Source of the DNA: Pyrenula massariospora
Taxonomy: Eukaryota > Ascomycota > Eurotiomycetes > Pyrenulales > Pyrenulaceae
Direction of reading: 5' to 3'
NCBI GenBank assembly: GCA_021030905.1
Contig: JAGFMI010000004.1
Span: 620,001 to 684,000 of the forward strand
DNA length: 64,000 nucleotides
In this document: piece by piece, positions 2,878-35,287 of the stretch
How the letters are laid out: every line of letters begins with the position of its first letter
How positions within the stretch are numbered: position 1 is the first letter of the stretch
The notes under the pieces: generated by a model
Told to the model about the DNA's origin: nothing
Database searches by the model: none
The model's input: the letters and a program-made list of their open reading frames with translations, nothing else
Translations under genes and position numbers: made by a program

Positions 2878-5571
2878 ATGACCGAAGCGATCGAGACGCC
2901 CAATAGGATCATACACAAGAGGAAAAGGACTGCTCTTTCTTGTTTCCGATGTCGCTCAAGGTAAGCTCGAGTTGGTAGACCGGAAAAATCTTTGCTTTTG
3001 ATTCTCGCGCTGAATGATTTGTACTGATCTGTCAAAAGAAAAGTAAAATGCGATCGCAGCCTTCCAAGCTGCACTCGCTGCATAAAGGGTGGTTTCGCAG
3101 ATAGCTGCAATTACGACTCCGCCGCCGCAACCGCCCATGCCGGTACTGCGCATTCTGTCAACAGCGACAGCATTCAGGACGACCACGCAGATGACCATGT
3201 GCAGAGGCCGGATTACGACTACGATCATGCGATGGACTACGTCCCACCGGACCACAACCGGCGGGCTGGTCCATCCACACGCTTCGAGGACAGCCATGTG
3301 CAAACGCCGAGTAGGAAGCGGACGGCTCCGAGAACGCAGGAGGATGAGATTTATGAATTGAAAGGTAAAGTTCAGGCGCTGCTCGAGTCTGCGATAGGAG
3401 GGTCGAGAGGTCCCCGACGGTCACGCCATGGAGAGCATTATCCGCTGAACTTGGATGGGTGGCAGCACGTGGAGGCTCCAGGTGCGACGGCGGAGGGGAT
3501 CTTTTTCCGAGGAAGGAGCTTTAAGACGCAGTATCATGGGCCAAGTCATCTTTTCAGCTTTGTTGGAGAGGTAAGCGTCTTGAACTTGTGTGTGGGTGAT
3601 TGCTAATGTTCGATATTAGTTTCCGGATCTCTCGGATTTTATGAAGGTGATCATGTCGCAGATTCCTATCATGCGACGTGCGAGAGACGAGATGATGACC
3701 TTAAAGAAAAATGAGAGCGAGCACGCAGATTTTCGTCCATCTTTTGAGCGGGAGAAATTGTTGCGGCTCATCCCGTCACGAGAGGAATCCGACAAACTAG
3801 TGCGAATCTACCTCAGAAACTTCGAGACAACGTTCCGAGTCCTTCATCTTCCGATCTTTCTCAAGCAGTACGAGCACTTCTGGGCAGCTCCGCACGAGGC
3901 AAAGACAGAATTCCTCATTATCCTTATCCTCGTCCTTGCAATTACGTATTGCATACCTCCACCTGACCCGGTCAGCTTCGTTGGCTTCAGCTCCACACGC
4001 CGTAATACTGCAATAGAATGGATCGCAATTTGCGCTTCATGGCTAGACAGCCAGAGTCAAAAGCATACAACTCTCGCCTTCTTCCAAGTGCATTGCTTAA
4101 TCTATCTGGCAAGGCGAATGAATATCGTGAAAGTTAAGCGCTCCTGGACCTCGGCTGGTTACGTTCTACGGCGTGCGATGGAAGCAGGTTTCCATCGGGA
4201 ACCGAGTCTCCTTGCTCATAAGATATCTGTCTTTGACCAAGAGATGAGACGGAGGCTATGGGCTACCATTTGCGAATTTGAACTACAAGAATCTATCGAC
4301 CGTGGCATGGCTCCTGGCATTCGAGAAGGCGATTGGGATGCAAGACCACCGGTAAACATTGGTGATGAAGAGTTGGACGAGGACTCCACCTTTCTCCCTC
4401 CCTCAAAAACCGTCACAGAGTTCACAAATACTGCCTTCCTAAACTTCTCAGCGAAGAATGTAGGCACCAGGCTAGAACTAGTATCCATGCTAAACCGCCT
4501 CGGCGCCCCAATCTCCTACGAGCAAATTCTCATGTACGACGAGAAATTATTGACAGTCATAGATGAACTTCCGACGTGGGGCACAGAGCTCACCTCCAAC
4601 TCCGAAAGACAACCCGCCATTATCGCACGTTCGCTCATTTGGCTACAAGTCCACCAATTTCTGATCATGCTTCACCGGCCTTTTGCACAAGGTGGAAGTC
4701 AAGCTTCCCGATACCGATACTCCCGCAACTCGTGTATCAGTTCGGCGCTTAGCGTGCTAAATCGATACACACAGCCTGATATCCAGACCGAATTCTCGCT
4801 CTGTGTGCTACGGACGGACCTCTTCCGCGCAGCATTCAGTCTATGCTATGATCTCGTTACTCTGAAAACGGACGGCACTCGTAAGTACCACCCCTCTCCC
4901 CTATTTGCTCACAGAATGTTCTCACACATCTCCCCACAGATACAGAATACATCCCTGCCCTTCCCCTCCTCACCACCTCCACTTCCTCCGCACCTTCCTC
5001 TTCTGAGCCCATCCGCCTGATCGAGCAATCCATCACCCTCCTCGAAGAAAAAGTCACCCGCCTCGGCCAAGCCATGCACCAATACTTCTTCCTCGTCTGC
5101 GCCTTCTCTCTCGCACAGATGCGCCTCCACCCCAATCTCTCAGACGCCGCAAAATTCAAACAAAACGCCGCGGACCGCATGACGTACTTGTGCTTCAAGA
5201 TCTTAAGCAGCCAGGTCGACGGACAGGCGGGCGGCATACGGCAGAGTGACCAGAGGGCCGGGGTTGGAGTTATGAGCGCGGAGCAGTTAGCGGGGACCAA
5301 GCCACCGCAGGAGAAGCAGCACAGGGGGAATTATTTCGGCGGGACGCCGGGAGATTCGATGGTGAATGGGGGGATTCCGACGCCGGATGTGTCTGCTGGG
5401 TTTGGGGGGAGTTTGCCTGATGTGAGTTTTTCTCTCTTTCTTTTGGTCCGGGATTCGGACGTGCTGACGGGGGATGCGTTGCAGCTCAATGATTTCTCGA
5501 TCGATTCGTTTAGCCAGGCTGATCTTTGGTCGTGGGATATTGATAATACGTTGTCGTTTATGGATGGGTAG
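2878..5571 (+). CDS. Zn2Cys6 fungal transcription factor
   Basis: Nuclear DNA-binding regulator of 814 residues. Exons are 2878-2960, 3039-3570, 3620-4880, 4940-5421 and 5485-5571; the introns are 78, 49, 59 and 63 bp. The binuclear zinc cluster spans intron 1: Cys22, 25, 32, 39, 42 and 51, with the RKVKCD stretch between the two halves. A basic run KRKR precedes it. The middle carries the fungal-specific transcription factor domain (about residues 250-550), with RIYLRNFETTFRVLHLPIF and the RRLWATI element. The C-terminal exon is short and acidic and ends in FMDG. Its neighbours are the thioesterase upstream and a 2.3-kb gap downstream. It could regulate the PKS cluster 10-20 kb away, but nothing in the sequence shows that. 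Target site unknown; proteins of this class usually bind CGG repeats. Confidence 0.88.
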
Positions 5572-14615: not shown

Positions 14616-14730
14616 GGAGTATTCAGGGGGTTCTGGTGGAAAAAGGATGGGCGCTTGAGGGAAATTGATTTTGGATATTTTTTTGTCATGTGTCCCCTTG
14701 CTTCTCACGGAGTACTGTTATGCGCTTGGT

Positions 14731-15892: not shown

Positions 15893-17270
15893 TCAAGCCA
15901 CCAGCCCCAACTTCTGGCCAAGCGCATACACCATCCACGCGCACGCGCTCCGCACCATCTCAAACCTCGTGCCCAATGCATACGCGGTCACCAGGAAGGC
16001 CCAACGGCTCTGCGCGTTCCCATATCTCAGCACGGCCCGATTCCACGCCTCCGGCGTCATCTCCCCCTGTACCACCTTCTCCATCAACCCGCAGTGGTAG
16101 GCTGCCTGGTTCGTGCTGAGACCGACATTCGGCCGGATGGTGAATACGGCGTCCCCAACGATGAAGACCTTGCCGTTGCAGAAGACGGCGTTCGGGGACG
16201 CGACGTCGAAGATTTTGGTGACAAAGGGGGCGCGGGTTTTATTCAGGATGGCGGCAAGACCCGGGGGGAGGGAGGCAGTGGCGAGGGCTTTTCGCTTCTC
16301 CCAGAGCTCGGGCCGGACGAGGTTGCGCGGGACGGTGCCATAGTGCAGGCGGCCGTTGGTGTCGGTCATGACTTCGGCGAGGCCGTCAGAGTCGGCAGGG
16401 AGGTTTTCATACCAGATCCAGTTATGGATGCGTTTACCGGGGTCCAAGTCGCCGTTGTCGGTGGGGACGGTGTATCTGAGTAGCAGGTCAGCTCCCATTA
16501 TTCTTTGCTCGATGGATTGTTCGATTTACGCAAGCATGTAGCTCCGATGCATGACGTGCAAAGGCATCCGCTCGCTGTACAGCTCATTCCATTTCTCGTC
16601 GATCGAAGCTTCTGGTGCTGTACCCCTCCAGCACATGTACCCAGCATACTGGCGGCGGTTCCCCGGCATGAAGATTTCGCGGGTCGAGGAATTCGATCCT
16701 TCAGCAATAATGACCATATCTGCCGCGATCGAGTGCTCTGTGCCACTGCTGATATCCTCGTAGTGCACCACGACTTCTGATCCTTTGTCCTTGACATCAG
16801 TAGCCCTTGCTCCATTCCTGAACTCCACCTCGCCGTCACCATCCTTGCTAACGTTTGCGTCGGGGACAGCAGCGCATGTCGTACCATCAAAATTCGCTCT
16901 CAGCATACTAAGCATTAGCCCCCAGCTTGTCGAACGCATAGCCTGATTGGATTTTGCGCTAATTTTCCCACCGCTGCTGACAGTTAGAGAGGCGGCGTTA
17001 TCGACAATGTGTGGCCGCTTCACGCGGTCATGCTTTTCGAGGAAAGCGAGAAAGTCCGCTTCCATCTTCAAACCCGCGTCATAGCCCTGACGGATGGTGG
17101 AGGTCGCCTGCTCAAGAATGGTGACCCGGTAGCCGTGGTGCTTCAACATGATGCCGTGCATCAGGCCGGCGTTGGAGCCACCGATCTGGAGCAATATTAG
17201 CCACATGCATGGTACCTGGCGGCCTTTCGCTGCGTCTTGGGGTACCCACGATGACTGCAGATTTGCCCAT
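15893..17270 (-). CDS. FAD-dependent monooxygenase
   Basis: Flavoprotein aromatic-hydroxylase type, 419 residues. Exons are 17270-17250, 17185-16530 and 16475-15893 (introns 64 and 54 bp). The first exon is only 21 bases, yet its join rebuilds the Rossmann motif as MGKSAVIIGGSNAGLMHGIM, which fixes the start. A variant GxxxxG loop (IGGSNAG) binds the FAD ADP moiety, the acidic residue at the end of beta-2 is in VTILEQA, and the second FAD motif is GDAVFTIRPN near residues 334-343. It resembles dihydroxypyridine-hydroxylase-like enzymes, many of which act on small aromatic or polyketide substrates. It is divergent from the MFS transporter 1.46 kb away and lies about 7.7 kb from the PKS, so tailoring of the polyketide is likely but inferred. 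Confidence 0.85.
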
Positions 17271-18727
17271 TGGGGAGATTTGTCGTCGGAAGTCAAGGAA
17301 TGTCTTGGAGATGGACTTGGACCGAAAGCGTGTCCGGGACTTCGAGCAGGATAGAGTGAGTCTCTGAAAGGAACGCTTCCCAACAAGACAGAGAATCGAA
17401 GCTCTTTTCTCAGACTGATGTCTCGCTCCACCACCAAAACAATAGCTTGGCTGCGTGCGGCTGCGCTGGCCCGAACGCGGTCCAATCCACGAGACGTGGA
17501 CTTGTCAACTGCTCAACTTACCGCAATCTAAAGCCATGCTACGTTGGGGTAGGAATTTGTAAGATGCCGATTCCACAGCGCTCTACTCCTACGTGGAGCA
17601 GCGGTGTAATCGTCAACGGTTAGCAGCATTGTGATCCAGGCTCTTTCGAGCTCAGTGTTCGGCCGAGTCCTGTCACGGTGCGCCCAGACTTAGCATGGAT
17701 TGTCTAGAGTGTTTCGGCGCCCTGAAATGGGTGACTTGGTATTGCCTTGTAAAGCGGGACATAAGTAACTGTGGTGTCGCACGCTATGGGGTCCAAATGC
17801 AGGGTCGCGAGGGTATCACAGACACGAGAGATAGAGAGAGAGAGGGTGTGTGAGAATGTATGTCATGAACGTCGGGGAGCTGTCGGCAAACCTGCCAGCC
17901 ATGCCAGCCACGCCCCCCACGCCAGCCTGTATCACAGCACGCAGCTCAGTTTTAGCCGAGAAACCTTGCACGCCTCAAGGATTGTACTACGCATGCAATG
18001 TCAATTTAGCCATGGATTAAAGGTTAGCCCCTTTCACCCCCCCGAGCACGGCAACAACCTAAAGCTTACTTCAATCTTGCATCAGCCAGGGGGATTGTCA
18101 GCCGGCCCATCGTGGTGCCGATCCCATTTCGCGTGGACGGGAAGGAATACAGCACCGTACATACAGATGTACGGGACAATACGCGGGAGGTCGACTTCGC
18201 AATACTGTGGTTTAGCAAGGTCAATTCTGCTCGCTTACAACAAAGATACCCGAAACCGTGAGAAATTTCTTCGGCCCCCAATCCAATGATCCAGTCGGGA
18301 TCAATGTTTGTGGATTCGACAAGGCAAAGCGGTCATGGAGCTTCCCTGCCGTCCTGACAAGGCGATGCAGTCCAATGTTGTCGCTATTGAAACCATCCAC
18401 TATCCAGTCGTCAATTAGCTGGGATCCGCAGTGGCTGCAGACCTCTTCATGGGCGTAGCTGCCTCGGCAACTGGGGAGTCTCATACTAGTGTGTCGTCCC
18501 TCAGCAAGGGTCTAGGAAAGATACGAGGCGGACCGGTGGCTGCACGGAGCGAGCCCCCGGCCGCAGTGGAAGCTCAAGAAACTAACTAAGTTTCTCAAGA
18601 GCTGTGGAGCCATTCAGCAAATTCCGGACTGACCTGCAAGGACGATTTCGTTATTGTCTCTTTGCTCTCTCGGCTTTTTCGCTTCTACTGGCCTTGCTTC
18701 GACTCTCAACCACTTCACTTGAGAGAA
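17271..18727. promoter_or_regulatory. divergent promoter interval between monooxygenase and MFS transporter
   Basis: A 1.46-kb gap between two genes that start facing away from each other. It holds a GA-rich microsatellite near 17828-17850. A 172-codon open frame at 17771-18289 has no protein-like features. No specific factor site could be supported. Confidence 0.4.
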
Positions 18728-20770
18728 ATGGGTCAACACAGCTCACCAGGATCGAGCGAAAGCTCGTCTCGGCCAGAAGACCCGGAGAAAACACCTGAAA
18801 TCGTAGCCGGAGAGTCGCAGAACGACGAGCAAGCAGATTCAGTCAGGCAGTCATACCCTTCAGGCCTCAAACAACGGATACTTACCTTTGGGTAAGTAAC
18901 AATGACAACAAAATTATGGTCTCAGAGATTCAGATATACGGAGCGGCATGGCTGATCAAATTGCAGATTATGTCTCAGCATCTTCCTTGTCAATTTCGAA
19001 ATCTCTATCGTGAGCACAGCGCTGGTCTCGATTGTCGATAGCTTGCAGCAATTTGGTCGCAGCAGCTGGATCATCACCGTTTATCTGCTGACCTACACTT
19101 GTGAGTTTTTCGGCTGCCAGACAAGGCGTCACCAGCATCTACTGAAACGCCCACTACGTAGCGTTCATGGTCATACTCGCCAAACTCAGTGACAACATCG
19201 GACGACGGCTGGTGCTAGTTTCGAGCCTGGCCGTCTTTGTTATTTCCTCGGGTGCGTGTGGAGCGGCGCAGACCATGAATCAGCTGTAAGTAAGACAGGC
19301 ACCCAAGATGCATCAAGTCCGGTCATTGCTAAGAATCTGTGGTCTACAGCATCGTGTTTCGCGCCTTCCAAGGGCTCGGTGCCTCGGGTGTGTATTCTCT
19401 GGTCATGATCGTTATCTTTGAGATGGTCGCTCCGGAACGGTATCCCAAGTATTCTGTCCTTGTGACATCGCTCTTCGCGCTATCTTTGTTTTCCGGACCG
19501 CTTCTGGGTGGGGCTATCAACAATAATACAACGTGGAGATGGATTTTTCTGTTGAAGTAAGGTGGCATCTTAGACTCTCCGGAACAGCGCTCTGACATAC
19601 TCATAGCTGTCCTGCAGGCGCGATTGGCCTGGTTGTCCTCTTTATTTGCATGCCGAATGATTTCCCCAGAGGCGGTCCCGACAAGGCAGACAAAAAGTTC
19701 GAGCTGCGCAAGCTTGACACGGTCGGAGCGGCTCTTATGCTTGCGGCTCTAGCACTCATGATCGCTGGATTTGAAGACGCAAGCAGTTTCTCGCCCTGGA
19801 CATCGGCCAAAGTCCTTGCCCCCATCATCGTGTCTGTCTTCGTTTTCATCGCCTTTCTTGTGCACGAACGGATAGTTACCCTAAGAGGAACAAATCGGCC
19901 AGAGCCGGTGCTTCCTTGGAGACTTCTCACAAATAGAGTCATTGTTGGTATCATTCTGTATGTTTTCTCAGGCGACAACTATGACAGTTCAATCACTAAT
20001 ACCTTGACACAGCAATGCATTCCTCACCGGCGGCGTTATCACATCTTGCATTATCCAGATTCCTTTGCGCTTCCAGTCCGTGCATAACGAGTCCGCATGG
20101 CACGCCGGAGTGCGTTTGATCCCGTTCGGCGTTGGCATTCCGATAGGGGCGGGCTTGACAGCAACAATCTGTGGGAAGCGACGAATGCCCATCATGTACA
20201 TGCTCGTCCCTTCCTTCGTGCTTCAGATTCTGGGATTAGTCTTCATGTCTCGACTGACTGTGGCCCATATCACGTGGGGTGGACAGTATGGTCTACAATT
20301 CATCACCAGCTTAGGCTGCGGCTTTTCCATCGGAGTGGTTACTTTGATGACGCCCTTTGTCATTGAGAAGAGAGACCTCGGTAAGAGCGTTCTGCCCAAT
20401 CTCGTGTTCCGTGTCCTCCCCAACGCGTCTTCCGGGGCTGACTGACTGACATCGGGTACCAGCGACCTCGACTTCGGCTGTTTTCCAATCGCGCCTGCTC
20501 GGTGGGGCCCTCGTTCTAGCCATCATCACAGCTGTCATGAACAGCAAATTGAAGAACGAGCTCGATCAGCTTGTCCCTGCCGAGGACGTGGCCCGAATCT
20601 TCCGAAGCGCGAAAGTGATCCAGACCCTCGCAGAGCCGACTCGGGCCAGAGTCAAAGACGCCTTCAATGGGGGCTACAATATGCAACTGAGAATCCTGGC
20701 CGGACTTGCGGGGGCGGAGATTCCGGCGACATTGATCATGTGGCAAAAGGAAGGGGTCAGGATTGCATGA
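18728..20770 (+). CDS. MFS multidrug-type transporter (DHA2-like)
   Basis: Polytopic plasma-membrane exporter of 551 residues. There are seven exons: 18728-18891, 18967-19100, 19162-19285, 19350-19556, 19607-19957, 20013-20380 and 20463-20770; the six introns are 50-82 bp. A hydrophilic N-terminus rich in Ser, Glu and Gln (about 50 residues) precedes the first membrane helix. The loop-2/3 MFS signature appears as LSDNIGRR, and the third-helix region has IVFRAFQGLGASGVYSLVMI, as in drug:H+ antiporters. I estimate 12-14 helices; the length and layout fit the 14-helix DHA2 group. The start at 18728 is the ATG before GQHSSPGSS; an in-frame upstream ATG at 18662 is less likely. Its position between the monooxygenase and the FSH/PKS pair suggests that it exports the cluster product. 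Confidence 0.87.
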
Positions 20771-21591
20771 GCGGGAGTGCTCACTTCCGCGATATCAACG
20801 ACAAAGGAGTTTTTGTCTTACGCAGTGCAAGCAGTCGTGGCGTACCTAGCTCTGGAGCGGTACAGCCTCATGCCGTGTCGTAACCAAGAGGAGGTGGAAG
20901 GAGTTCCAAAAGTTATCTTACAATATAGATTGGTGGCAGCGTATCTTACAATTGTAAATTAACAGGCTCCATCGTGCTAAGCATTCCTTGACCTTCCTTT
21001 GAAACACTACCGCATCTCGGCGACCTCTGACACACTACTACAACTTGAAGACCATTGGAAGCGTTTCACAGATTTTTTCGTCTGTGCATCTAGCGTACCC
21101 CAATGCTTTTTATGTCAAGTAAGGTGTTAAGTTGATGGACTGATTGGTAAGTCTAACACTAATCACGTGAAAAATTTGACTGCGTATAAAAAGCAGTGTC
21201 TTACTGTGGGGACGGTAGGTAAAGTATCACAGAGTTCTGTACTACTTTGCTCATTTTCAAGCTGATGCTTCTCGAGAGAATACTTAGGAAAAGAAATGCG
21301 ACAAATTTTGGCTCGTTTACTCCCGACAATACAGCAGGGGCTTAAGGGCAGTGCATCGCCATTAGAGTTTATACCTCATCAAGAAGGCACCGCATTACTG
21401 AAAGTGGAGCTGCGAAACGGTTCCATCGGCACACTACTGCACCTTGACAATGACTTACGTACTCTCCATGCTAAGTGGTAGTCGCGTGTTCATAACAGCA
21501 CCAACCCAAAGGTGAACTACGCACCATCCAATCTCAGGGTCTCACATGCGGTCGAGACTGTCTGATGGCGCACACACTAAGTTAGGCTGGG

Positions 21592-22015
21592 GGCGGCTCA
21601 TCCCGTCTACCGCAGTAATACAAGATAAGAGATCCGTGCTGCCTTTCCAGGCTTATTAAATTTTAGCGGCCTTCACTGCCCCACTAGTTTTTACATACAC
21701 GTACAATTCTTATGGTGGGGCTCGTTTAACTAGACCTGAAATATATACGCTCAATAACCAACGTTACACAAAACCCACTAAAATTCAATCGGCCTGAGAC
21801 GTAGTAAGCAAGAAGGTCAGGTTTATACGTTCTATTCCTTCGGCTGCAGGTCGTCGATCGTAATGGCCCCGAAACCGAAAGCGGCTCGTCCCGTCTACTG
21901 CATCGTCGCAAGATAAGAGATCCGCGTCAGCATGGCCGACCAGATTCATATGTTCTGTTCCTTCGGCCGCAGGCCGACGATCGTGCTGGTCCCCGAATCG
22001 GCCAAGCCCCGTCCC
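21592..22015. repeat. cluster of three related short repeat units
   Basis: Units at about 21592-21645, 21825-21935 and 21946-22015 share the blocks GGCTCRTCCCGTCTAC, AAGATAAGAGATCCG and CCTTCGGCYGCAGG. Read on the - strand, the last two units both give DRRPAAEG followed by a short similar tail. They look like pieces of an old duplicated element of unknown family. Confidence 0.6.
21662..21788. repeat. dispersed repeat, copy 1
   Basis: Aligns in the same orientation to 23963-24089 over 127 bases without net length change. Shared blocks include TTAGCGGCCT, TTACATAC-CGTACA and CCCACTAA. Several differences are C/T or G/A changes, as repeat-induced point mutation would leave. Element type unknown. 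Confidence 0.6.
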
Positions 22016-22892
22016 CTTTGGCGGCCGGTCCATCCACAGAGACATGTACACGGTTAGTATTCGCGAGGCTGGGTATCCACACGCCACGGCAAGTGCTATG
22101 GCTGCCTGGATCGGGTCAGCACTTTCGGCGCACATCCGTCCGTGTACGTGAGATTGCAGATGCATGTCGTCATATCCCGGAATCAGAGAGCCTCAATCGA
22201 GAAATGTCTCAATTGATGTGGAAGCCTTCGCACACCTTCTCGAGACGAATTAAATTGAAAGCTCAGCGAGGGCCCCTCTACTAACGAGACATAGATCTGA
22301 CACACATCACACCTAGCCTACACCTAGACTACCATGGCTCCAAGACTTGCACATTTGTGGCAGTCTAGTAGTACTAAACACCGACTGGGCGTACATTTTG
22401 GGGGTTCGGAGGCGGTACAAAGCACCGCTATACCTAATCCGGTCACAAAATGCGCAGCCTTATCCTTGAAGATACAGAGACGGCCTTCTTAGTCATTATT
22501 ACGTGATATTCGGTGTTAACAGTTGATAGGATATGTCTGAATGTATCGTCGCCTGCTTCCATAGCTTGTTGCTAGGCGTCGTTGACCTCCAAAAGGTCGT
22601 TTACTAGTGCTACAATCGCCGTTGAGTTAAGGCGTCGGAATCGGGTAAATCAGTTGTCGAGCGAAGCTTGCCTGACGCTAGAATAAGCTACAAGAAAGGG
22701 GTGTAACGGGTTCGGGGGGGTGTTACGGGTTCGGGCGGGCGGGACGGGATGTGGAGTGGGTAGGGGTTCACCCTAAGCTCTAATCGGAACTCCTCCAGCT
22801 AAAAAGCCAAGCGACGCTACAGCACTGTCTATTAACCGTGCATCCGAAGATGACCTTGTGAAACCCTGGGGCCACGTTTTCCTGGCCGCTTT

Positions 22893-23684
22893 TCAGCCCG
22901 CTTTTTTTGCCCTCCAGATTGCCCTCCTCACCAGATGGACCACGCTCCTGACCGCAGCCTGATCCTTGCTGCCGGGTATCTCGTGGCCACCCGCATGTTG
23001 GAAGTCTTCCCTGGTATCTTTGGCGCACACCTTCTTCAGTTTCGGTGGCCACTGTGTTTCGCCCTGCTTCACATCGCCCCAAACGTGCACTGTGGGGATT
23101 GTGATGGTCTGCTCGGCCTCGGGGTATTCCATAAGCTGGAATTTGTCCTGAAGCAACACGTCCGGATCTGTGCTGAGGCCCCCTGAGAAGAAAATTGCCA
23201 TTCGGAAGGGCGCCGCTAGCTGGGGTTGACGGGCATAGCGGACCAGGAGCGTTGAAGCCAGGGAGGCACCGTTGGAGAATGCGATGACTCCATCGAACGG
23301 TCCGTAAACCTTGACGTAATGGTCCAGATCATTGAGTGCCTTCAGACAAGAGCTTGGCGAATCTTCGTAGAAGTAAGCAAAGTGCTGATCTTTGGCAGAA
23401 GAAAGTGCTTCGAGCCCTGCAGTACCCTAAGTTAGTGTCACAATGGCGGAAAATCGGATAACCTTCTCTATTTGGAGATCCTTCGTACCTGGCGCCGCCT
23501 CTTCGGGCAGGAAACCTTCCACGAATTCGTAGGAATGACCGTCACCGAGTTGGTACCGCATGGCTCCTAGTCTTCTCAGAGATCAATTCCACCAAGGATA
23601 TGAGGGCAGAAAAAGGGTCTCACCAAGCTGCATTTCCATTATCTGGGAGTTGCTCCCCTTGCCGTGAAGGCATAGAAAACGCAT
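22893..23684 (-). CDS. FSH1-type serine hydrolase (LovG-like)
   Basis: Small alpha/beta hydrolase of 220 residues. Exons are 23684-23624, 23566-23489 and 23416-22893 (introns 57 and 72 bp). The family start MRFLCLHGKGSNSQIMEMQL fixes the ATG. Ser94 lies in the elbow AFSNGAS, where the usual first Gly is Ala. The family His appears as His191 in HAGGHEIPG. The acidic residue is probably in VHVWGDVKQ. For the last intron I chose the acceptor CTGCAG at 23417, because the nearer TTAG would break the ALSSAKDQHFAYFYED segment. Members of this family such as LovG release the product of highly reducing PKSs that lack a thioesterase. It sits 1.3 kb from, and divergent to, exactly such a PKS, which makes that role likely here. 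Confidence 0.83.
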
Positions 23685-24982
23685 CTTGTCGGGTAAGTTG
23701 TCCGAGGCTTCAGAGTTGGATATTGACAGCAAAAGAAGAAGATGAACGACCAACGATGCTTTACTTCTGATTTCTGGACTCAGGAGCTCGTCTTTCCATA
23801 TTTTAAAAAATATCGGACATGCAGGGCAAGATCGCCGTGACATGGTACAGCCACACAGTCTGAGGGCATGTGCGGGAGCATGACCTAGCCCGCTTCTTAC
23901 CTTCGAACAGACAAAATGGACCCTCTCCGCCCTCCTGTACTATGGCCGCATGGGTATAAGATGTTAGCGGCCTCCACTATCTCATCGTATCTTACATACG
24001 CGTACAGTTCTCGCAACGGATGTTTTCAACCAATTTTAGAAGATTCTCGCACAATAAGCAAAGTTACAGAAGGCCCACTAACATTTAATACCCTGGGGAC
24101 CATAGTACGCTTCCCCCGGCTAACAGTATTGTATTCACAGCGACGCGCGAGCGAAGGAGCGCTAGGCGCCGCCGAAGGTTTATTCCAGCCTCTGTGGTAC
24201 CACTACTGTTCATCGAGGCATCGTTGCTGATGGGTATCACAGCCTTGACAATCAATTCTCTGGCCTGATATACGATAGTCAATTGCAAGTCCCTGTCATC
24301 ATCCCTTGGTGTCGGTCCAGATTGAGCCGCTGCAGGTTCCGTCACTTTGCCCCCTTCGTCACGTAAAACCTTTCTAATGATGCACGTCTCGCTGTATCGG
24401 AGGCGATACAGACAGGAACTAAGTCTTTATTACCGGCTGAGAGGATTTCAGAGCCTATCTTCAGACGAAACTTTGAAACACAGCCGGCAAAATTTGCGAC
24501 AGGATCTTCGGTATCTAGGCACTGGCTTGTGACGGCGAGGCACCGAAGTCGTGGCCGACACGGTCTAGAAGATCTGATGGTGCTTGCAACCTGCTACAGG
24601 TTAGTCTGAAGAGAATTAGCAGGCATACGCGTACGCGATGCACGGCATATTGTGATCGTTCGTTGCCGAAGGAAGCTTTGAAGAATCCATAGTCAAGCGG
24701 CAGGCTTGTGGGGGTCCTCATACTACGATCGCAACATCGCTGTCTGGACCCGCGCCACTAACACAATCTTGGAAGCCATGTGAATACGGTAAGCGGACAA
24801 CCGGTCGAGTCTATCTGGGGGCTGTACGATGAAAAGGCAAGATGGAAAAAGGAGAGGAGCGGTGCGTTGAGGCTTAGAAGGTTGTAATAATTTGAAGAGT
24901 GCTGCTGTACTTCGATGTATTGAGGCCACACCATCTCCATCACTTCCCTCTCGCCCCTACACACATCATACTCGCATCCAAG
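23685..24982. promoter_or_regulatory. divergent promoter interval between FSH hydrolase and PKS
   Basis: A 1.3-kb shared upstream region, which would allow joint regulation of chain synthesis and release. A relic repeat (23963-24089) lies inside it. No binding site for a named factor could be supported by eye. Confidence 0.45.
23963..24089. repeat. dispersed repeat, copy 2
   Basis: Partner of 21662-21788, about 2.3 kb away in the same orientation. The two copies lie on opposite sides of the FSH hydrolase gene. This copy is richer in CpG than copy 1. Confidence 0.6.
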
Positions 24983-27900
24983 ATGGATTCCTCTTCCTCC
25001 TCGTCACGTTCACCAGACTTGTCTACGACTGACACTTCATTGTCTGACCAAAATGAGACGATACCGCCATTGTCGGCTCCTGTCGTGGAGCCAATCGCCA
25101 TTATCGGAATGGCGCTCAAACTGCCTGGTGAAGCAGACTCAATTGATTCATTCTGGGATTGCATGATGAATGGGCAGTGTGTGGCATCTGAATTCCCAGC
25201 AGACCGAATCAATCATGCCGCGCATCACAACCCAGATCCAGCAGCCATGGGCACAGTGAGTATCATCCAAAAGCAGAGAAAACATCCTTGATGACTTGCT
25301 CCAAGATTCGTCCCCAGAAGGGTCATTTCCTCAAGGAAGATTTGGCTGCCTTCGATTCGTCGTTCTTCCGTCTCTCTGCAACGGAGACTGCAGCCATGGA
25401 TCCGCAACAACGAGGTCTGTTGGAGACGACCTATCAGGCTCTTGAGAATGGTTTGTACGTCATTGATACTAGGAAACTTTTCTTACCTTGAATATAGCTG
25501 GTCTTCCCTTGAACAGAGTATATGGCACCGATACGTCGGTCCATACAGGCTGCTTCACGGCTGATTACATGTTGATGATGGGAAAAGATCCGGAAGTCAT
25601 GCCAAAATACACGGCAACTGGTGTCGCGGCAGCCATGTTATCTAACCGCCTTAGCTCCTACTTCGGGCTCACAGGGCCTAGCTCAACCATAGATACAGCA
25701 TGCTCTGCCAGTCTAGTGGCTCTGGATCAGGCTTGTCAGTCACTTCGCCTTGGACACAGCTCAATGGTATGACTCCTCTCAAGTAGGCAGCATAGAATTG
25801 GACTAATACTCTCAAGGGAGTTGTTGCGGGATGCAACCTTATTTTTTCGCTCGACTTGACCATCGGCCTGTCAAACATGGGATTCCTCTCGCCGGATGGT
25901 GTTTGTCATAGCTTCGACTCGAGAGCGAATGGCTACGCACGTGGCGAAGGATTCGGCGTCATTATCATCAAGCGCCTTAGCGATGCAATCAAAGATGGTG
26001 ATACAATCAGAGCCGTCATTCGAAATACCCAAAGCAACCAGGATGGTGACACACCGCTCGCGCAGCCGAGCAAAGAGGCGCAGGCCCGCCTGATCTCCGA
26101 CACCTATAGAAGAGCTGGTCTTAGCACTTCAAAAACCCGGTATGTTGAAGCGCATGGGACAGGGACACCCGTCGGCGATCCTCTCGAAGCCAGCGCGATC
26201 GGAACGTCCTTAGCTGCCGGCAAGCCAAAGGCGGACGCGGTTTACGTCTCTTCTTTAAAAGCCAACTTTGGACATCTTGAAGGTGCAGCCGGTATCGCGG
26301 GTGTCATCAAGAGCGTCCTCATACTTGAAAAAGCCATAATACCTCCGATTGCTGGCCTCGAGAGCGTCAACCCAGAGATCGACGCTGATTTCCTGAACAT
26401 CAAAGTTAGTCTGTCTTGAGTGCCTCACGTCAGTAACTGACCATTTTCCCATCCAGTTTCCAACAAGCGCGATTCCGTGGCCCGAGCCTGGCGTCCGCCG
26501 AATTTCTGTCAACTCTTTTGGATTTGGTGGCACAAATTCACATGTTATTCTAGACGACGCCCACCATTACATGCAAAAGAATGATTTAGATGGGAAACAT
26601 TCCACCAGACCAAGTACTCCCTCTCTGGCTGAGCTCAAAGGCATTGAGGAGAACGACTCGATCATCCCCTTCATGCCTACATTACGAAAAACTGATTCAC
26701 CGCTTTTACTCGCGTGGTCCGCGAATGACGAGGTGTCTTTGCTAAAGATGACAGAAGAGTACTCGAGATGGCTCGCGAAAGCAGAGAAGCAAAATTCTGG
26801 CAATCAAATTGCAACATCGCTTGCGCACACACTGCTTCAGCGCAGATCTCTTCTTCCCTGGAGAAGTTTCGCAGTTTCAAGTCCAAACCAAGGCGCAGAC
26901 CAGCTTTTGATCTCGAGACCCAGGAACGCACAACCAGCTTCAGATCTCTCCCTCGCTTTTGTGTTTACTGGTCAAGGAGCCCAGTGGTGTGGCATGGGCA
27001 GGGAGTTGTTGGTTCATCAAGTCTTCAGGCAGAGTGTTTCAGATGCGACGGTATATCTCAAGAGTCTCGGTTGCGAAAGGGATCTCCAGGGCGAGTATTC
27101 TATGTATTCGACCATACAAGGATTCTGGACTGACTTCTACCTAGCTGCATTTACTCCTCAACTTGTGCTCGAAGAAGAGCTTAGTGAGCCCAGTTTCGCC
27201 CAACCAATTTGCACGATTCTTCAGATTGCTCTGGTGGAGCTACTTGCTTCTGTGAACGTACGACCCTCAATTGTCATCGGACATTCGTCTGGAGAAATTG
27301 CCGCCGCGTAAGTCGCACTACCCATTCCATTTTGACGTGACATTCTGAACGTGCTAGTTATGCAACGGGCGCAGTCAGCCGTGAATCTGCATGGCGACTT
27401 GCCTACTTGCGCGGGGTTTGCTCGAGCAAGCTTTCTCATATGGAAGGAGTACGTGGAGCTATGGCGGCTGTGGGTCTCTCGGAGCATGACGCACAACAAT
27501 ATATCGACAACCTTGTGAGCGAGCTAGGACCCGGTGACCTCACCGTCGCATGCGTGAATAACCCCACAAATGTGACAGTTTCTGGGAACAGGGCTCATGT
27601 CGAGGCACTGACTGCGCGTTTGGAGCGGGCTGGAACTTTTGCTCGTATTCTGAAAGTTCCTGTAGCCTACCACGGACCACACATGAACCTTGTCGCCGAT
27701 GAGTACCGGGCGGCCATTGGTCATATTGATCCAGGGCAATCGCTCGCTCGCAATCACGTCAACATGATCTCGTCTGTCTCTGCGGACTGCGTGTCACAGG
27801 ACGATCTTCGGGATCCAGGCTACTGGGTTCGAAATATGGTATCCCAGGTAAAATTCTCACAAGCAGTACAGATTGCTTTTGCCAGCCCCAAACGGAAAAT

Positions 27901-30900
27901 AACCAAGAAACTGGACCTTTCTCACCAGAAGGCTCTCTGGGCAACCGAGATCCTTGAAATCGGACCGCATGGGACTCTGTCAGGTCCAGTTCGGGAGTCG
28001 TTGAAGCCGGTGCCTAACGGAGATGCGATAGAGTACTTTTCCGTCCTTTCGCGCAAGAAAAATGCTTACATTACAGCCATGGAAGCTCTGGGTCACCTGC
28101 ACTGCAAGGGCTACCCTGTGAATCTGCTCAAGATGAATGAGCCCTCCAGTGGCGATCCAGACGGTCAACTTTGTTTGCCGAGTTTGCCTTCGTATCCCTT
28201 CAATCATACCAAAAGCTTTTGGTTCGAATCGCGAATCAGCAAAGACATGCGGTTTCGGAAGAACGGAAAGAACGTCTTTTTGGGTTCCCCAGTTCCTGAC
28301 TGGAACCCGCTCGATGCCCGGTGGCGCGATTTTCTGAACGTCCAGAAATCAAAATGGATTCCGGACCACAATATCAATGATCGTGTTCTGTTTCCTGCTG
28401 CTGGAATGCTTGTCATGGCGATTGAAGCCGCACTGCAGATTTCCAGCGATACCGAAGTATCCGCAATCGAGATCACGGACGCGGAGTTCCACTCTGCGCT
28501 TGAAATACCGTCCGAATCTCACGACGTGGAGACGCAATTCCAAATAGTTCCGCGAAAGTCGAGCACCACTAAGAATAGCTCTCAATACGACTGGCAGTTG
28601 AGGATGTTCCAGCAGGAATGGATCGAGGTATGCCGAGGAACGATTCGCGTTATCCACGCCGGCAACGCTTCTAGCGAAGTTGATTCCCAGAGCGAAGAAG
28701 GTCGTCTGACCCAGCTGTCTGCCGAGCAATTCGACAACATCTCTCGCCAATGCTCTGGCACTGTGGAAGGGCAAGAGCTATACAGCCGTTTGTGGAAGCG
28801 TGGCTACCATTTCGGTCCAACTTTCAAGCGTATTCTAACGTCAACGCACTCCTCTTCTGGTGAAGCGACGGCAGAGGTTGAGGTTCTCGACTTCGAAGGG
28901 GTTGATCAGCCTACTGTCGTGCACCCAGCAACGCTCGATGGGATACTGCAGATCATGCTACCGAGTGCTACTGATGGAGGCGAAGACTCCGAGTTTGCAA
29001 CAGCCCTTCCAACTAGGATCAATCGGATCTGGCTCTCCCGGAATGGTCTACTTCGCGCTGACGCAGAGAAAGTCAAGGTTGCCGTTAATATGCAGAAAGA
29101 TGGACTGCGCAACACAACGTCGGATATTGTGGCGCTGGCGGCGGATGGATCGCTGCGCGTGTTTGTTGAAGGCATTCAGACGACGTCCATAAGCGACGGT
29201 CTGGAGTCATCTTTGAAGAACCCTTCAGAAAGATCAGCAAGGTTATGTTGGGATATCGTCCATAAACCCGACGTGACGCTTCTACAGCCCGGCCATTTAC
29301 AAGCTTATCTCGATCGAGACGTCCCAACCCTGGCAAATCCGGCACAATATTACAAGGATTTCGATATCATACTTTATTCATTTATCAAACATACTCTGGC
29401 TGAGCTCAAGGAGGATTCCGTCGCTAATTCCTCATCTCATCTGGAGCATTACTACCAGTGGATGGTGAAAAGGATTGGGGACTCACATATTAATATTGCG
29501 CAAGCATCCGAGCCGGTAGAAGACGCACTAGTACTCACGGATTTCCGATCCAGAGTTTTTGCTCAAGATCCTAGGCACAGCGAGATGTATAACAGAGCCG
29601 GTCAGCACCTGCTCAGCATCCTGAAGGGAGAGACAGATGCTCTGGCCCTTCTTTTCGAGGGTGACGATCTATCAGACTTCTACGTCCGGATCCTTGAAAC
29701 AGCCGATTTCCTGACCCCGCTTCAGCGCTACATTGGTCTTCTTGCCCATAAGAACCCTTCGATGAGAGTCCTCGAGGTGGGAGCCGGTACCGGAGGAGCG
29801 ACGACTCATTTTCTGGAGGCCCTGACCCAGCCCGGGACTGTTGGCCAAAGTGCCTATTTCTCCGACTACTGCTTCACAGATATATCACCATCGTTCTTTG
29901 AGAAGGGTCAGCAAAAGTTCAGTGACGTGCCTCGAATGAGTTGGAAGGTCCTGGACGCTGAGAAAGACGTTTTGGAGCAAGGATTTGAAACCGAGTCATT
30001 TGACCTAATTGTCGCCTCCCTTGTCCTCCATGCAACAACGTCCCCGAGCGATGCGTTGGCAAATTTGGCTAAGTTGCTAAAGCCCGGAGGAAAACTCGTC
30101 GCTGTTGAGATCACCCGTCCGGATCAATTACGCGCGGGCTTTGTCTTCGGTCTCCTCCCGGGGTGGTGGCTGAGCAGTGAGTCGTCCCGTCCCGATCGAT
30201 TAAGTCCGGCTTTCACAGAGTCCGAATGGGATGAGAGACTGCGCTTCAACGGTTTCAGCGGCGTGGATCAGATCTTCTGGGATAGTGATGATGACGATAC
30301 TCGTCTTCTGTCGGTCTTCGTCTCTACAAGGGTGGAGACGCCTCAGAGACAGGTGGATGAGCGTCTACCTTCGGCGGCTATAGTAGCCACATCCGACTGT
30401 TGCAGCGTCTACGCGCAGGTGTGTCGCCAAAAGCTTCTTGACGCTGGTCTTGAGACATCAGAGACAAACTTTGCTGCTCTGGCAGACCCCAAGGACCTGT
30501 CAACTACCCTAGTTGTGGTCATTGATAGCGCCTCCAAGCCTTTCCTTCAATTGTTTGACGAAGAGCAGTTCCTCAGCCTTCGTAACCTGCTTTCTCAAAG
30601 ACTGAATATTCTGTGGATCTCGACAAGCGAGGAAGAGGACGCCTCAGCCGCGTCAAAAGGCATTGTCTACGGCTTCGCTCGCACGCTCCTGTCTGAGAAT
30701 GCATCTCTGAGATTCACCATTTACGAGGCAAGCTCTTCATCGTCCATTAAGCGTCAGGGCGAAAACCTCGAAGCCGTCATCCGACATTGTCTCTCCGCTT
30801 CATCACCCGGTCCTTCCCCCGAGCCAGAGATCCTCGAAGTAGATGGCCTGCTCCAGATCCCACGAGCAGTAGAGGACGTCGAGCTCAACCAGAAAGTGTC

Positions 30901-33220
30901 GGAGCAAGGCCTCTCCAGAGTCCGTCGTGATGTGCACTTTGGCGAAGAAGACCTGAGGCTCACGGTGCAAACGCCCGGCCTCCTCGACAGCCTGATATTC
31001 AAGCAGTGCGTTGAGCCTCTGCCACCGACGCTGAGTGCAGACGAGGTCGAAGTCCACGTGATGGCCGTAGGCGTCAATTTCAAAGACTGTCTCGTCGCTC
31101 TGGGCCGCGTGCCGGACGATACACTTGGCACCGAGTGTGCTGGCATCGTTGAGAGGGCTGGCGCCTCCTGCAGCGTCCAAGCTGGGGATCGGGTCGTTGT
31201 GTCCGCCTTAGACACATACCGCAGCCGCGTACGTTGCAACGAAGCGCTCGTGGCAAAGATTCCCGACCATATCCCCTTCACCACGGCCGCGAAACTGCCC
31301 ACTAACTTCGTTACCGCTTACCATGCCCTTGTCGAATTGGGCCGCATCTCTTCAGGGGAGACCGTGCTCATCCACGCCGGCGCTGGCGGCACCGGGCAAG
31401 CGGCCGTTCAGATCGCGAAAGTATACGGCGCTGAGGTCTTCGTCACGGTGGGTAGCCCCCACAAGCGGGATCTGCTCACATCGACCTACGGCATTCCCAA
31501 GGACCACATCTTCTACAGCCGAGACACGTCGTTCGCACAGGGGGTCAAAAACGCCACTGGCGGCCGAGGCGTGGACCTGGTCCTCAACTCGCTGGCGGGT
31601 GAAGAGCTGCGGGCCTCGTGGGATTGCATTGCCCCCTATGGACGATTCCTGGAGATCGGCAAGCGGGATATACTCGCCCGTGAGCAGCTGCCCATGTTCC
31701 GGTTTTTGAGAAATGTGTCGTTCTCGGCGATCGATATTGCGGCGATGACGAAGGAGCGCCCGGACCTGATACAGAAGGCGCTGTTGGCGGTGGTGAGACT
31801 GTTGGCAGATGGAAAGATATGGGTGGCGGCGCCGCTGCGCAAGTTCTCGCTCCTAGAGGTTGAGGACGCGTTTCGGTACCTGCAGAGCGGTACGAATGCG
31901 GGAGCGGTTGTCGTGGAAGTTGACCAGAACACGATTGTACCGGTGAGTCACGAACAGCATCATGATCACCACTTCACCCTCTTCTCATCACTAACTTCCT
32001 TTCCTCTTAGGCCTTGATGGTACCCGCGCAAAAATCCTGCTTCAAGCCCGATGCAACATATGTCATCAGCGGCGGCCTCGGCGGCCAGGGCAAGAGTATT
32101 GCGCGCTGGATGGGCGAGCAAGGAGCAAAGAATCTCCTTCTACTCTCCCGACAAGGCTTGAAGACCAAGGGCGCGGGTGATTTCATCACCGAGATGGAGA
32201 CCATGGGCGTGCGTGTCGAGGCACCCGCGTGCGACATCACAGACGAGAACGCGTTGCGGCAGTGCCTAGCCATGATGACGGCGTGGATGCCGCCCATCAA
32301 AGGCTGTATCCAGGCGGCCATGGTTCTTAAGGTAAGCTTTCCCCCTATTCCCAGCTACTAAAAAGGAAAAAGCAGCTGACGCTGTGGTCCAGGACTCCCT
32401 CTTCGACACCATGCCCCCCTCCTCCTTCCGTGCCCCCCTCTCCCCCAAACTCGCCGGCACCCTCAACCTCCACCACACCCTTCCCCCCTCCCTCGATTTC
32501 TTCATCCTTTTCTCCTCCACCTCCGGCATCATCGGCTCTTCCGGCCAATCCAACTACTCCGCGGCCAACACGTACCAGGACGCTCTCTCCACCCACCTGC
32601 TGCGCCACAGCCAGCGAAAAATCGTGTCGCTCGACCTGAGCGTCATGGGCGAGGCCGGCTACTTTACCGAACACGGTGACGTGTTGGAGCAGTACCTGGG
32701 GATCAAGAAGCTGGTGCGGATGGGGCAGGCGGAGCTGTTTGCCGTGTTGCAGCATTTCTGCGACCCGGATCTCTCGCTCGGAGACATGAAAGACGGAAGC
32801 AGTCAGGCGAAAGGACAGGTCGTAATGGGTCTCGCCCTCCCCGCCGACGTCGCCGAGACCGCGAACTGGATGTCGCGCCCCCTCTTCTCCTCCCTCCACG
32901 CCCTTCCCCCCTCATTCACCACGTTAGGCCTTCCCACATCCTCATCCGCCCAGCCGGATGCAGCAGGCGGCCCTGTCACCCTGTCTTCCATCATCCTCTC
33001 CCTGCAGACCAAGCTCTCGCGCCTCATCTCCCTCCCGGCCTCGGAGATCGACACGGCCCGTCCCATCGCGAGCTACGGGGTCGACTCGCTCGTGGCGGTG
33101 GAGTTGCGGAACTGGTTCCTACAGAGGTTCGGCGTGGATGTCGTGGTGTTTGAGATCTTAGGCGGTGGGAGTGTGGAGGCGCTGAGTGCCGATGTTGCGC
33201 AGAGGTTGGGGGTGGAGTAG
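24983..33220 (+). CDS. highly reducing type I polyketide synthase
   Basis: Iterative PKS of 2619 residues. Eight exons: 24983-25255, 25306-25450, 25498-25766, 25817-26404, 26457-27307, 27358-31942, 32011-32331 and 32393-33220 (introns 47-68 bp). Domain order: KS (about 35-430, Cys208 in [20 protein letters not shown]), AT (about 590-900, Ser702 in GHSSGE), DH (from about 1000, His1046, partner motif [10 protein letters not shown]), C-methyltransferase (about 1450-1700, [11 protein letters not shown]), ER (about 1925-2235, [13 protein letters not shown]), KR (from about 2250, SGGLGGQG and NYSAANTY) and ACP (Ser2576 in [10 protein letters not shown]). It ends just after the ACP with no thioesterase or reductase. 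All catalytic motifs I can see are intact, so a methylated reduced chain is expected. An 18-residue insertion in the AT may be an unspliced GC-AG intron (27091-27144). Confidence 0.95.
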
Positions 33221-34310: not shown

Positions 34311-35287
34311 ATGATTCGCACAGTCAAACCGCGGATCCTAGCGCTACAGGCTCATCCTGCTATCCTGTATTCCACCTCCGCCACCACCCCACTCAAGATG
34401 TCCGCCCCACCCCCCGCCAATCCCACCGAGCCCGAACCCACCGACTTCTTCCCCAGCCGCTACGCACCCCGCGACAAAACCTGGTAAGCCCCCCTTCCCC
34501 TCCCTTCTCCCTCTTCCCCTCCTTGCTCCCCCAACCCCACCCCACCCCCTCCCTAACCCCCAATCCGCACAGGGAAGCAATAGACCGCTACACCCTCACC
34601 CACCTCGCCCCACCCCCCTCCTCCCCGCACCACGCCACCCTCCAACGCACCCTCCACACCTCCCTCTCCTCGGCACTCCCAGACATCCACTCCTCCCAAA
34701 CCTTCGCGCGCTTCCTCGCCCTCCTCGCCCTCGCCACGCGCACCGCCCACGCCCTCGAAATCGGCACCCTCGGCGCGTACACGAGCATCCAGCTCGCCCT
34801 CCTCAACCCCTCCCTCCGCGTCACCACGCTCGAAGTCAACCCGCGGCATGCGGAGGTCGCGCAGCGGAATATAGACAATGCCGGGGTGGGCGGGAGGGTG
34901 GAGATTGTGGTTGGGGCGGCGATGGAGAGTATTGCGAAGCTTGAGAAAGAGATTGAGAGGGGGGAGAGGGAGAAGGTGGGGCTGCTCTGGATCGACGCGG
35001 ACAAAGCCAACAACCACGCCTACCTGAGCGCGTGCCTCCCCTTGCTCCGCCCGCGCGCGCTCGTGCTCGTGGACAATCTCGTGCAGCGGGGGGATTTGCT
35101 GAGGGACCCGGATCAGGATCAGGGGCAGATGGGGGAGGGGGAGAGGGGGGCGGTGAGGGGGGCGAGGGAGGTTATTGAGAAGACGGGAAAGGAAGGAAAA
35201 GTGGAGGGGGTGGTGGTGCAGACGGTTGGGGAGAAGGGGTGGGATGGGTTTTTGATGGGTGTTGTCAAGGACGGTTCAGGGGAGTGA
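34311..35287 (+). CDS. class I O-methyltransferase (CCoAOMT-like)
   Basis: SAM-dependent catechol- or caffeoyl-CoA-type O-methyltransferase of 295 residues. Exons are 34311-34483 and 34573-35287 (intron 89 bp). The SAM-binding motif is ALEIGTLGAYTSIQLALL. The metal-binding Asp is in LLWIDADKANNHAYL and a second acidic motif is in LVLVDNLVQRG. The first 29 residues (MIRTVKPRILALQAHPAIL and on to YSTSATT) look like a mitochondrial presequence. A second in-frame ATG at 34398 would make a cytosolic form. The coding region is very C-rich at third positions, like its flank. It follows the PKS by 1.1 kb and could be a cluster member, but conserved fungal genomes carry such enzymes outside clusters and the leader argues for a general role. 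Confidence 0.82.

What the first reader, a model, noticed from the sequence alone, without database searches (positions are those of the whole stretch)
15893..33220. Compact polyketide cluster: monooxygenase, MFS, FSH hydrolase and highly reducing PKS
Two divergent pairs (FAD monooxygenase/MFS and FSH hydrolase/PKS) stand together, with a Zn2Cys6 regulator 10 kb to the left and conserved housekeeping genes from 35969 rightward. The PKS has KS-AT-DH-MT-ER-KR-ACP with intact motifs, so it should make a C-methylated reduced chain. I cannot match the set to a known compound. The edges are uncertain: the left may reach 2878 and the right may include the O-methyltransferase.
Basis: partly seen in the sequence, partly recalled or inferred. 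Interest (0 to 1): 0.72.

Follow-up and report, generated by a model that had tools for sequence, protein, structure and literature searches.

The report
Ordinary fungal reducing polyketide gene cluster
A fungal chromosome carries an intact enzyme for making a methylated, reduced polyketide beside the hydrolase that probably releases it; an oxygenase and an exporter next to them may or may not belong, so this is a normal orphan gene cluster with an unknown product.

Summary
The genes exist as described: FAD monooxygenase (-, 15893-17270), MFS transporter (+, 18728-20770), FSH1-type hydrolase (-, 22893-23684) and highly reducing PKS (+, 24983-33220, 2590 aa, no in-frame stop) with KS-AT-DH-MT-ER-KR-ACP. 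It is an ordinary orphan HR-PKS locus with a LovG-like hydrolase, in a 37.8-Mb fungal genome with 63 merged ketosynthase loci. The hydrolase-PKS half is well supported: 12 of 17 other FSH1 loci lie within 16 kb of a ketosynthase. The monooxygenase-MFS half is not: 0 of 6 other family members do, and the best monooxygenase paralogue neighbours an MFS paralogue 22 kb from any ketosynthase. A 2.1-kb repeat-bearing spacer separates the halves. The regulator at 2878-5571 has an intact Zn2Cys6 finger, but two genes without an evident biosynthetic role intervene. Depudecin does not fit by content. New details: Lys where the hydrolase's catalytic Asp is expected, and a MITE-like copy in the hydrolase-PKS promoter. 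Product unknown; novelty low.

The parts
24983..33220 (+). Highly reducing PKS, KS-AT-DH-MT-psiKR-ER-KR-ACP, 2590 aa, 9 exons (24983-25255, 25318-25450, 25498-25766, 25817-26404, 26457-27069, 27145-27307, 27358-31942, 32011-32331, 32393-33220); the 27070-27144 intron is uncertain
   Evidence: Gene model and motifs; Pfam; LovB 7cpx best PDB match E=5e-251; MT, ER-KR and DH matched to solved domains
22893..23684 (-). FSH1/LovG-like serine hydrolase, 220 aa, 3 exons; probable trans-acting chain-releasing thioesterase; Lys at the usual catalytic Asp position
15893..17270 (-). FAD-dependent monooxygenase, 2,6-dihydroxypyridine-hydroxylase-like (PF22607), 419 aa, 3 exons; membership of the pathway uncertain
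18728..20770 (+). MFS transporter, about 14 transmembrane segments, 551 aa, 7 exons; membership of the pathway uncertain
23685..24982 (.). Shared divergent promoter of the hydrolase and the PKS, with a MITE-like copy at 23938-24107
21645..21806 (.). Second MITE-like copy, 5' end eroded, in the spacer (20771-22892) between the two gene pairs
2878..5571 (+). Zn2Cys6 transcription factor (Zn_clus + Fungal_trans), 10 kb left; link to the cluster not shown
34311..35287 (+). O-methyltransferase-like protein (PF01596), 1.1 kb right of the PKS; membership not shown

Best explanation
This is a small orphan secondary-metabolite cluster around a highly reducing iterative PKS. The PKS would build a linear chain from malonyl units, C-methylate some positions with its MT domain, and reduce to varying degrees with its own KR, DH and ER. 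No release domain was found on the PKS. The divergently transcribed FSH1 hydrolase would cut the chain from the ACP in trans, as LovG does for LovB. The FAD monooxygenase would then hydroxylate or epoxidise the released product and the 14-TM MFS protein would export it. Shown here by sequence: the genes, the domain order, the active-site motifs and the genome-wide pairing of FSH1 genes with ketosynthases. Inferred: release in trans, the oxygenation, the export and the order of steps. The product is unknown.
For: Open 2590-aa PKS with [57 protein letters not shown] and GVDSL (what these motifs stand for is recalled). Pfam lists no thioesterase or terminal reductase domain. KS to DH match LovB and psoA, MT matches LovB, 7dmb and psoF, ER-KR matches mycocerosic acid synthase, and the ACP matches LovB weakly. 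The MT keeps the glycine-rich motif and the VLHAT...VEIT stretch. The FSH1 gene is divergent from the PKS. 12 of 17 other FSH1 loci lie within 16 kb of a ketosynthase locus, where 5.2% of the genome does, and 9 of 17 within 10 kb. Trans-release is described for lovastatin, and loss of the thioesterase gene abolished fusarielins (PMC6274466, passages). Monooxygenase and MFS are open and adjacent.
Against: Nothing independent ties the monooxygenase/MFS pair to the PKS: 0 of 6 other family members above the cut-off are within 16 kb of a ketosynthase, and another such pair lies 22 kb from one. 5 of 17 other FSH1 loci are not within 16 kb of a ketosynthase. The hydrolase lacks the canonical acid (Lys; 6 of the 7 paralogues read have Asp). 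A fusarin-cluster FSH hydrolase was reported as not essential (PMC10512364, passages). No shared promoter motif. No expression or chemistry data.
Confidence: 0.52

Rival explanations
1. The pathway is only the hydrolase-PKS pair. The monooxygenase-MFS pair is a separate module, for example for taking up or detoxifying a small aromatic or heteroaromatic compound, that happens to lie alongside.
For: The monooxygenase's nearest solved relative is 2,6-dihydroxypyridine hydroxylase (2vou), a catabolic enzyme (that role is recalled). Its family is otherwise away from ketosynthases. The best monooxygenase paralogue lies about 1.3 kb from an MFS paralogue (C11:246053-247381), whose first part has the highest identity over more than 100 residues of the rows scored (45%), with a short-chain dehydrogenase-like ORF on the other side (read by eye) and no KS within 22 kb. 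The spacer between the pairs is 2.1 kb and holds repeats.
Against: The two pairs sit within 17 kb between genes of no evident biosynthetic role, and oxygenases and MFS exporters are common partners in such clusters (recalled). The second part of that C11 MFS is only 30-34% identical, the best-scoring MFS match is another gene, C11:280919, and the chance of such a neighbourhood was not computed. The window monooxygenase has RPN where the 4 paralogues read (of 6) and 2vou have RPH, which hints at a changed substrate.
Confidence: 0.28
2. A larger cluster: the Zn2Cys6 regulator at 2878-5571 and/or the O-methyltransferase at 34311-35287 belong too.
For: Both are families often found in such clusters (recalled); the regulator's zinc finger is intact.
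Against: Two genes of no evident biosynthetic role (ULD_2 with a sub-threshold PigL_N match, and Tle1-like) lie between the regulator and the cluster. No palindrome stands out in the two promoters. The O-methyltransferase is convergent with the large HECT-type gene.
Confidence: 0.1
3. A decaying or silenced cluster: the hydrolase has lost its catalytic acid and a transposon relic sits in the PKS promoter.
For: Lys at the Asp position; MITE-like copy at 23938-24107 in the divergent promoter and another at 21645-21806.
Against: The PKS and the other three gene models have no in-frame stop. The hydrolase keeps Ser and His, and an Asp two residues upstream might stand in for the acid.
Confidence: 0.08

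Closest known systems
Lovastatin LovB/LovG system (PKS structure 7cpx)
   Same: HR-PKS with KS-AT-DH-MT-KR-ACP and a separate LovG hydrolase; best PDB match of this PKS. That LovG is of the same family as the hydrolase here rests on the papers' wording, not on a comparison
   Different: This PKS has its own ER domain matching solved ERs; LovB works with a separate LovC (abstract of PMC7870829) and its chain runs on well beyond the ACP (3046 aa). No partner genes like those of lovastatin were sought beyond the window.
Fusarielin FSL cluster
   Same: Reducing PKS with MT plus a trans-acting thioesterase whose deletion abolished fusarielins (PMC6274466, passages)
   Different: FSL uses a trans-acting ER, an epimerase and a P450; here there is a FAD monooxygenase and an ER in the PKS
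Fusapyrone FPY cluster
   Same: PKS with an FSH1-domain protein and an MFS transporter (PMC10512364, passages)
   Different: FPY has a P450 and a dehydrogenase among its genes; the term 'monooxygenase' had no occurrence in that paper's text
Depudecin DEP cluster
   Same: Reducing PKS with FAD monooxygenases and an MFS transporter (PMC6177402 and PMC8620734, passages)
   Different: DEP has two FAD monooxygenases; a DEP5-like PKS is listed without a methyltransferase (SNOG_06676, 66% to DEP5, PMC4205913, passages). Here there is one monooxygenase, a PKS with MT and an FSH1 hydrolase.
2,6-Dihydroxypyridine hydroxylase (2vou)
   Same: Closest solved relative of the monooxygenase, E=7e-18
   Different: A catabolic enzyme (recalled); residues 153-354 carry most of the match, the N-terminal part only weakly, and RPH is RPN here. 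In NCBIfam the best match is the unnamed subfamily PRK07236 (E=7e-70, below its cut-off).

Membership tests
Fungal highly reducing PKS | KS-AT-DH-(MT)-ER-KR-ACP on one chain with active-site motifs | tested here: met
Fungal highly reducing PKS | Makes a reduced, C-methylated chain | not testable with these tools
   Needs expression and chemistry
LovG/FSH1-type trans-thioesterase | FSH1 family profile with nucleophile Ser and His | tested here: met
   PF03959; AFSNGA and GGHEIP align with paralogues and 1ycd
LovG/FSH1-type trans-thioesterase | Catalytic Asp at the conserved position | tested here: inconclusive
   Lys at the column where 6 of the 7 paralogues read (of 17 other loci) have Asp and the seventh Glu followed by Asp; an Asp lies two residues upstream (columns counted by eye); the AlphaFold model of the exon-3 part was unusable, pLDDT 37.8
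LovG/FSH1-type trans-thioesterase | Releases the PKS product | not testable with these tools
   Inferred from pairing with ketosynthases
Depudecin cluster | Two FAD monooxygenases, MFS and PKS together | tested here: not met
   One monooxygenase among the modelled genes around the PKS; definition from passages
Depudecin cluster | PKS without methyltransferase domain | tested here: inconclusive
   The MT is present and keeps its motifs, but the domain list seen is that of a DEP5-like PKS, not of DEP5 itself
Depudecin cluster | Sequence similarity to DEP genes | not tested
   DEP sequences are not held by the tools
PF22607 / dihydroxypyridine-hydroxylase-like monooxygenase | Family profile and FAD-binding motif | tested here: met
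   PF22607 E=3e-38, PF01494; 2vou E=7e-18

The most novel reading that the evidence does not exclude
The four genes form one pathway in which a dihydroxypyridine-hydroxylase-type flavoenzyme, a family otherwise away from PKS genes in this genome and with an altered RPN active-site motif, has been recruited to oxidise a C-methylated reduced polyketide, giving a compound type not yet described.
Probability: 0.25. Interest if true: 0.42.

Novelty: new member of a known kind. Interest (0 to 1): 0.25.

Why it matters
It adds one orphan polyketide locus to a genome with 63 merged ketosynthase loci. The more general result is a measured, genome-wide association of FSH1 hydrolase genes with ketosynthase genes, which supports trans-release as a common mode in this fungus, together with a caution that neighbouring oxygenase/transporter pairs need not belong to the cluster. 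If the four genes do act together, the monooxygenase would be a testable case of a catabolic flavoenzyme family used on a reduced polyketide.

Tried and rejected
Depudecin was considered first because of its FAD monooxygenases, MFS and reducing PKS. It was rejected on content (one monooxygenase, an FSH1 gene, MT present); sequence comparison was not possible, and a search for DEP5, DEP6 and depudecin together found no paper. Citreoviridin/aurovertin- and ACR-toxin-like clusters were considered from memory only and not pursued. A paper search for a dihydroxypyridine-type monooxygenase in a polyketide setting gave one listing, on salicylate catabolism. Searches combining HR-PKS, FSH1, hydrolase, FAD monooxygenase and MFS terms showed no title or abstract start with this gene set; only listings were seen for most of these, so this is not proof that none is in print. 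A shared regulator motif was sought in the two divergent promoters: one shared 11-mer, none of 12 or more; CGG/CCG palindromes share only the spacings 9 and 14, once each; no shuffled control was run. An AlphaFold model of the hydrolase's exon-3 part from a single sequence was useless (pLDDT 37.8). The segment 21052-21435 that matches C31:640842-641239 looked like a shared cluster gene because it lies near another FSH1 and KS, but no coding match was seen and it looks like a repeat. The first gene-finder run was undertrained and missed genes; it was replaced after training on 200 kb of the same genome. An alternative AT-intron donor broke the frame and was dropped.

Counting notes: 115 KS rows were merged to 63 loci; they include fragments, any fatty-acid synthases, and matches with stops inside, which may be introns or pseudogenes. 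21 FSH1 rows were merged to 18 loci, all above the family cut-off. 11 PF22607 rows were merged to 8 loci and one, C20:331889, below the cut-off, was dropped, leaving 7; no KS row lies on C20. The MFS search scored 79 of 159 candidates. An earlier count from the protein search (11 FSH and 7 monooxygenase loci; rows) gave the same picture: 8 of 11 and 1 of 7 within 10 kb, the window's own included. The binomial figure treats loci as independent. One unlinked FSH1 locus (C7:1081031) is about 3 kb from its contig end (contig length), so a PKS beyond could not be seen.
Full report
What the window is. I trained a small splice-aware gene finder on 200 kb of the same genome plus the window and a few short loci and refined splice sites by hand.

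The four genes lie at 15893-17270 (-), 18728-20770 (+), 22893-23684 (-) and 24983-33220 (+). None has an in-frame stop in the final models. Introns are 47-82 bases with GT...AG ends; one PKS intron in the AT region (27070-27144) has a weak donor, so its exact edge is uncertain. Pfam assigns PF22607 and PF01494 to the monooxygenase, PF07690 and PF06609 to the transporter, PF03959 to the hydrolase, and the full highly reducing set to the PKS, including a pseudo-KR (PF23114) and a C-terminal ACP. The transporter has 15 hydrophobic peaks in a simple scan, the first two overlapping, consistent with 14 segments.

The PKS. The best solved relative is lovastatin nonaketide synthase LovB (7cpx, E=5e-251). 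The MT aligns through the glycine-rich motif and the following catalytic stretch with LovB, 7dmb and psoF. The ER-KR part aligns over nearly its whole length with mycocerosic acid synthase (5bp4, E=2e-83), whereas LovB matched only in the KR there. The DH matches psoA and LovB. Which positions are methylated or reduced cannot be read from sequence.

Hydrolase and PKS belong together. FSH1 family members were sought across the genome: 18 loci after merging 21 rows. Distances to 63 merged ketosynthase loci show 13 of 18 within 16 kb, or 12 of 17 without the window's own, where 5.2% of the genome is that close (binomial p about 2e-12); and 10 of 18, or 9 of 17, within 10 kb (p about 9e-10). Five of the 17 are farther away, by 34 to 901 kb. 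Loci are not strictly independent, but the effect is large. Trans-release is described for lovastatin, and deletion of the thioesterase gene abolished fusarielins (PMC6274466, passages). The fusapyrone paper notes an FSH1-domain protein in its cluster, and that a fusarin-cluster FSH hydrolase was dispensable (PMC10512364, passages).

A caution on the hydrolase. It keeps the nucleophile (AFSNGA) and the histidine (GGHEIP). At the column of the catalytic Asp it has Lys (HVWGDVKQG), whereas 6 of the 7 paralogues read (of 17 other loci) have Asp and the seventh Glu followed by Asp (by eye); the yeast structure 1ycd has Asp there. An Asp two residues upstream may replace it. A single-sequence fold of the exon-3 part was not usable.

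Monooxygenase and MFS are less certain. Seven PF22607 loci exist above the family cut-off; apart from the window's, 0 of 6 lie within 16 kb of a ketosynthase. The highest-scoring paralogue of the monooxygenase (C11:243431-244729, 33-34% identity) is about 1.3 kb from an MFS paralogue at C11:246053-247381. The first part of that MFS has the highest identity over more than 100 residues among the rows scored (45-48%), its second part 30-34%; the best-scoring MFS match is another gene, C11:280919-282424, 30%. The next ketosynthase is 22 kb away and an ORF on the other side reads as a short-chain dehydrogenase (by eye). So monooxygenase plus MFS is a neighbourhood that exists in this genome without an adjacent PKS; I did not compute the chance of that. 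It does not exclude recruitment: the window monooxygenase has RPN where the 4 paralogues read (of 6) and 2vou have RPH.

The spacer. Between the MFS and hydrolase genes lie 2.1 kb without a predicted gene. It holds a 162-base element (21645-21806) that matches 25 other places (the 27 rows are these, the window itself and one unrelated match); the copy at 23938-24107 matches 13 others. Neither search listed the window's other copy; that they are one family rests on their alignment with 12 genomic copies and on a 74% match over 57 bases. Aligned copies show inverted ends of the type TACTAC/TACTATGG...AGGCCTATTAAATTTTAG with TA at the tips, which suggests a Tc1/mariner-type MITE (class inferred from memory). 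One copy is in the spacer and one in the hydrolase-PKS promoter. A second repeat-like element spans about 21050-21435. These relics make later joining or drifting apart of the two pairs plausible.

Edges. Left of the monooxygenase are a Tle1-like protein and a ULD_2 protein, then the regulator, whose Zn2Cys6 finger is intact, then, reading predicted proteins by eye, a patatin-like protein and a calcium-ATPase-like protein. Right of the PKS is a PF01596 O-methyltransferase, then genes with no sign of a role in this pathway; the Ppo-type oxygenase is probably a developmental oxylipin enzyme (recalled). No shared long word or outstanding palindrome links the two promoters.

Known systems. Mechanistically it works like LovB/LovG or fusarielin release, with its own ER. 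It is not depudecin by content: that cluster has two FAD monooxygenases and an MFS; a DEP5-like PKS is listed without a methyltransferase, though DEP5's own domain list was not seen. No paper with this exact set showed in the listings. I could not compare with MIBiG.

Verdict. A real, intact, ordinary orphan HR-PKS locus. By my judgement the core (PKS plus hydrolase) is about 85% likely to be one functional unit and the four-gene version about 52%. Novelty is that of a new member of a known kind.

Noticed in passing
21645-21806 and 23938-24107: Two copies of a 162-170-base MITE-like element with inverted ends, with 25 and 13 further matches in the genome; they flank the hydrolase gene, and one lies in its divergent promoter with the PKS.
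   Followed up: yes
about 21050-21435: Segment 66% identical to C31:640842-641239, which lies near another FSH1 and ketosynthase; partly matching inverted ends suggest a second repeat element.
   Followed up: partly
21593-21636/21881-21924 and 21818-21892/21941-22015: Two diverged local direct repeats (73-82%) in the MFS-hydrolase spacer.
   Followed up: no
49110-52529: Haem peroxidase plus P450-like protein of the psi-factor-producing (Ppo) oxygenase type beside the large HECT-type gene.
   Followed up: no
12896-14668: Protein with the domain named after the bacterial T6SS phospholipase effector Tle1 (PF09994, E=3e-79).
   Followed up: no
7860-9793: ULD_2 protein with an in-frame run of Asp-Pro-Ser repeats.
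   Followed up: no
whole genome (G000): 63 merged ketosynthase loci in a 37.8-Mb genome; some matches contain stops, which may be introns or pseudogenes.
   Followed up: partly
C11:243431-247381 (L031, L056): Monooxygenase and MFS paralogues side by side, 22 kb from the nearest ketosynthase.
   Followed up: partly
right flank, window coordinates 68434-72796 (L023): Outside the window: a second Zn2Cys6 regulator and an alpha/beta-hydrolase-like gene (read by eye).
   Followed up: no
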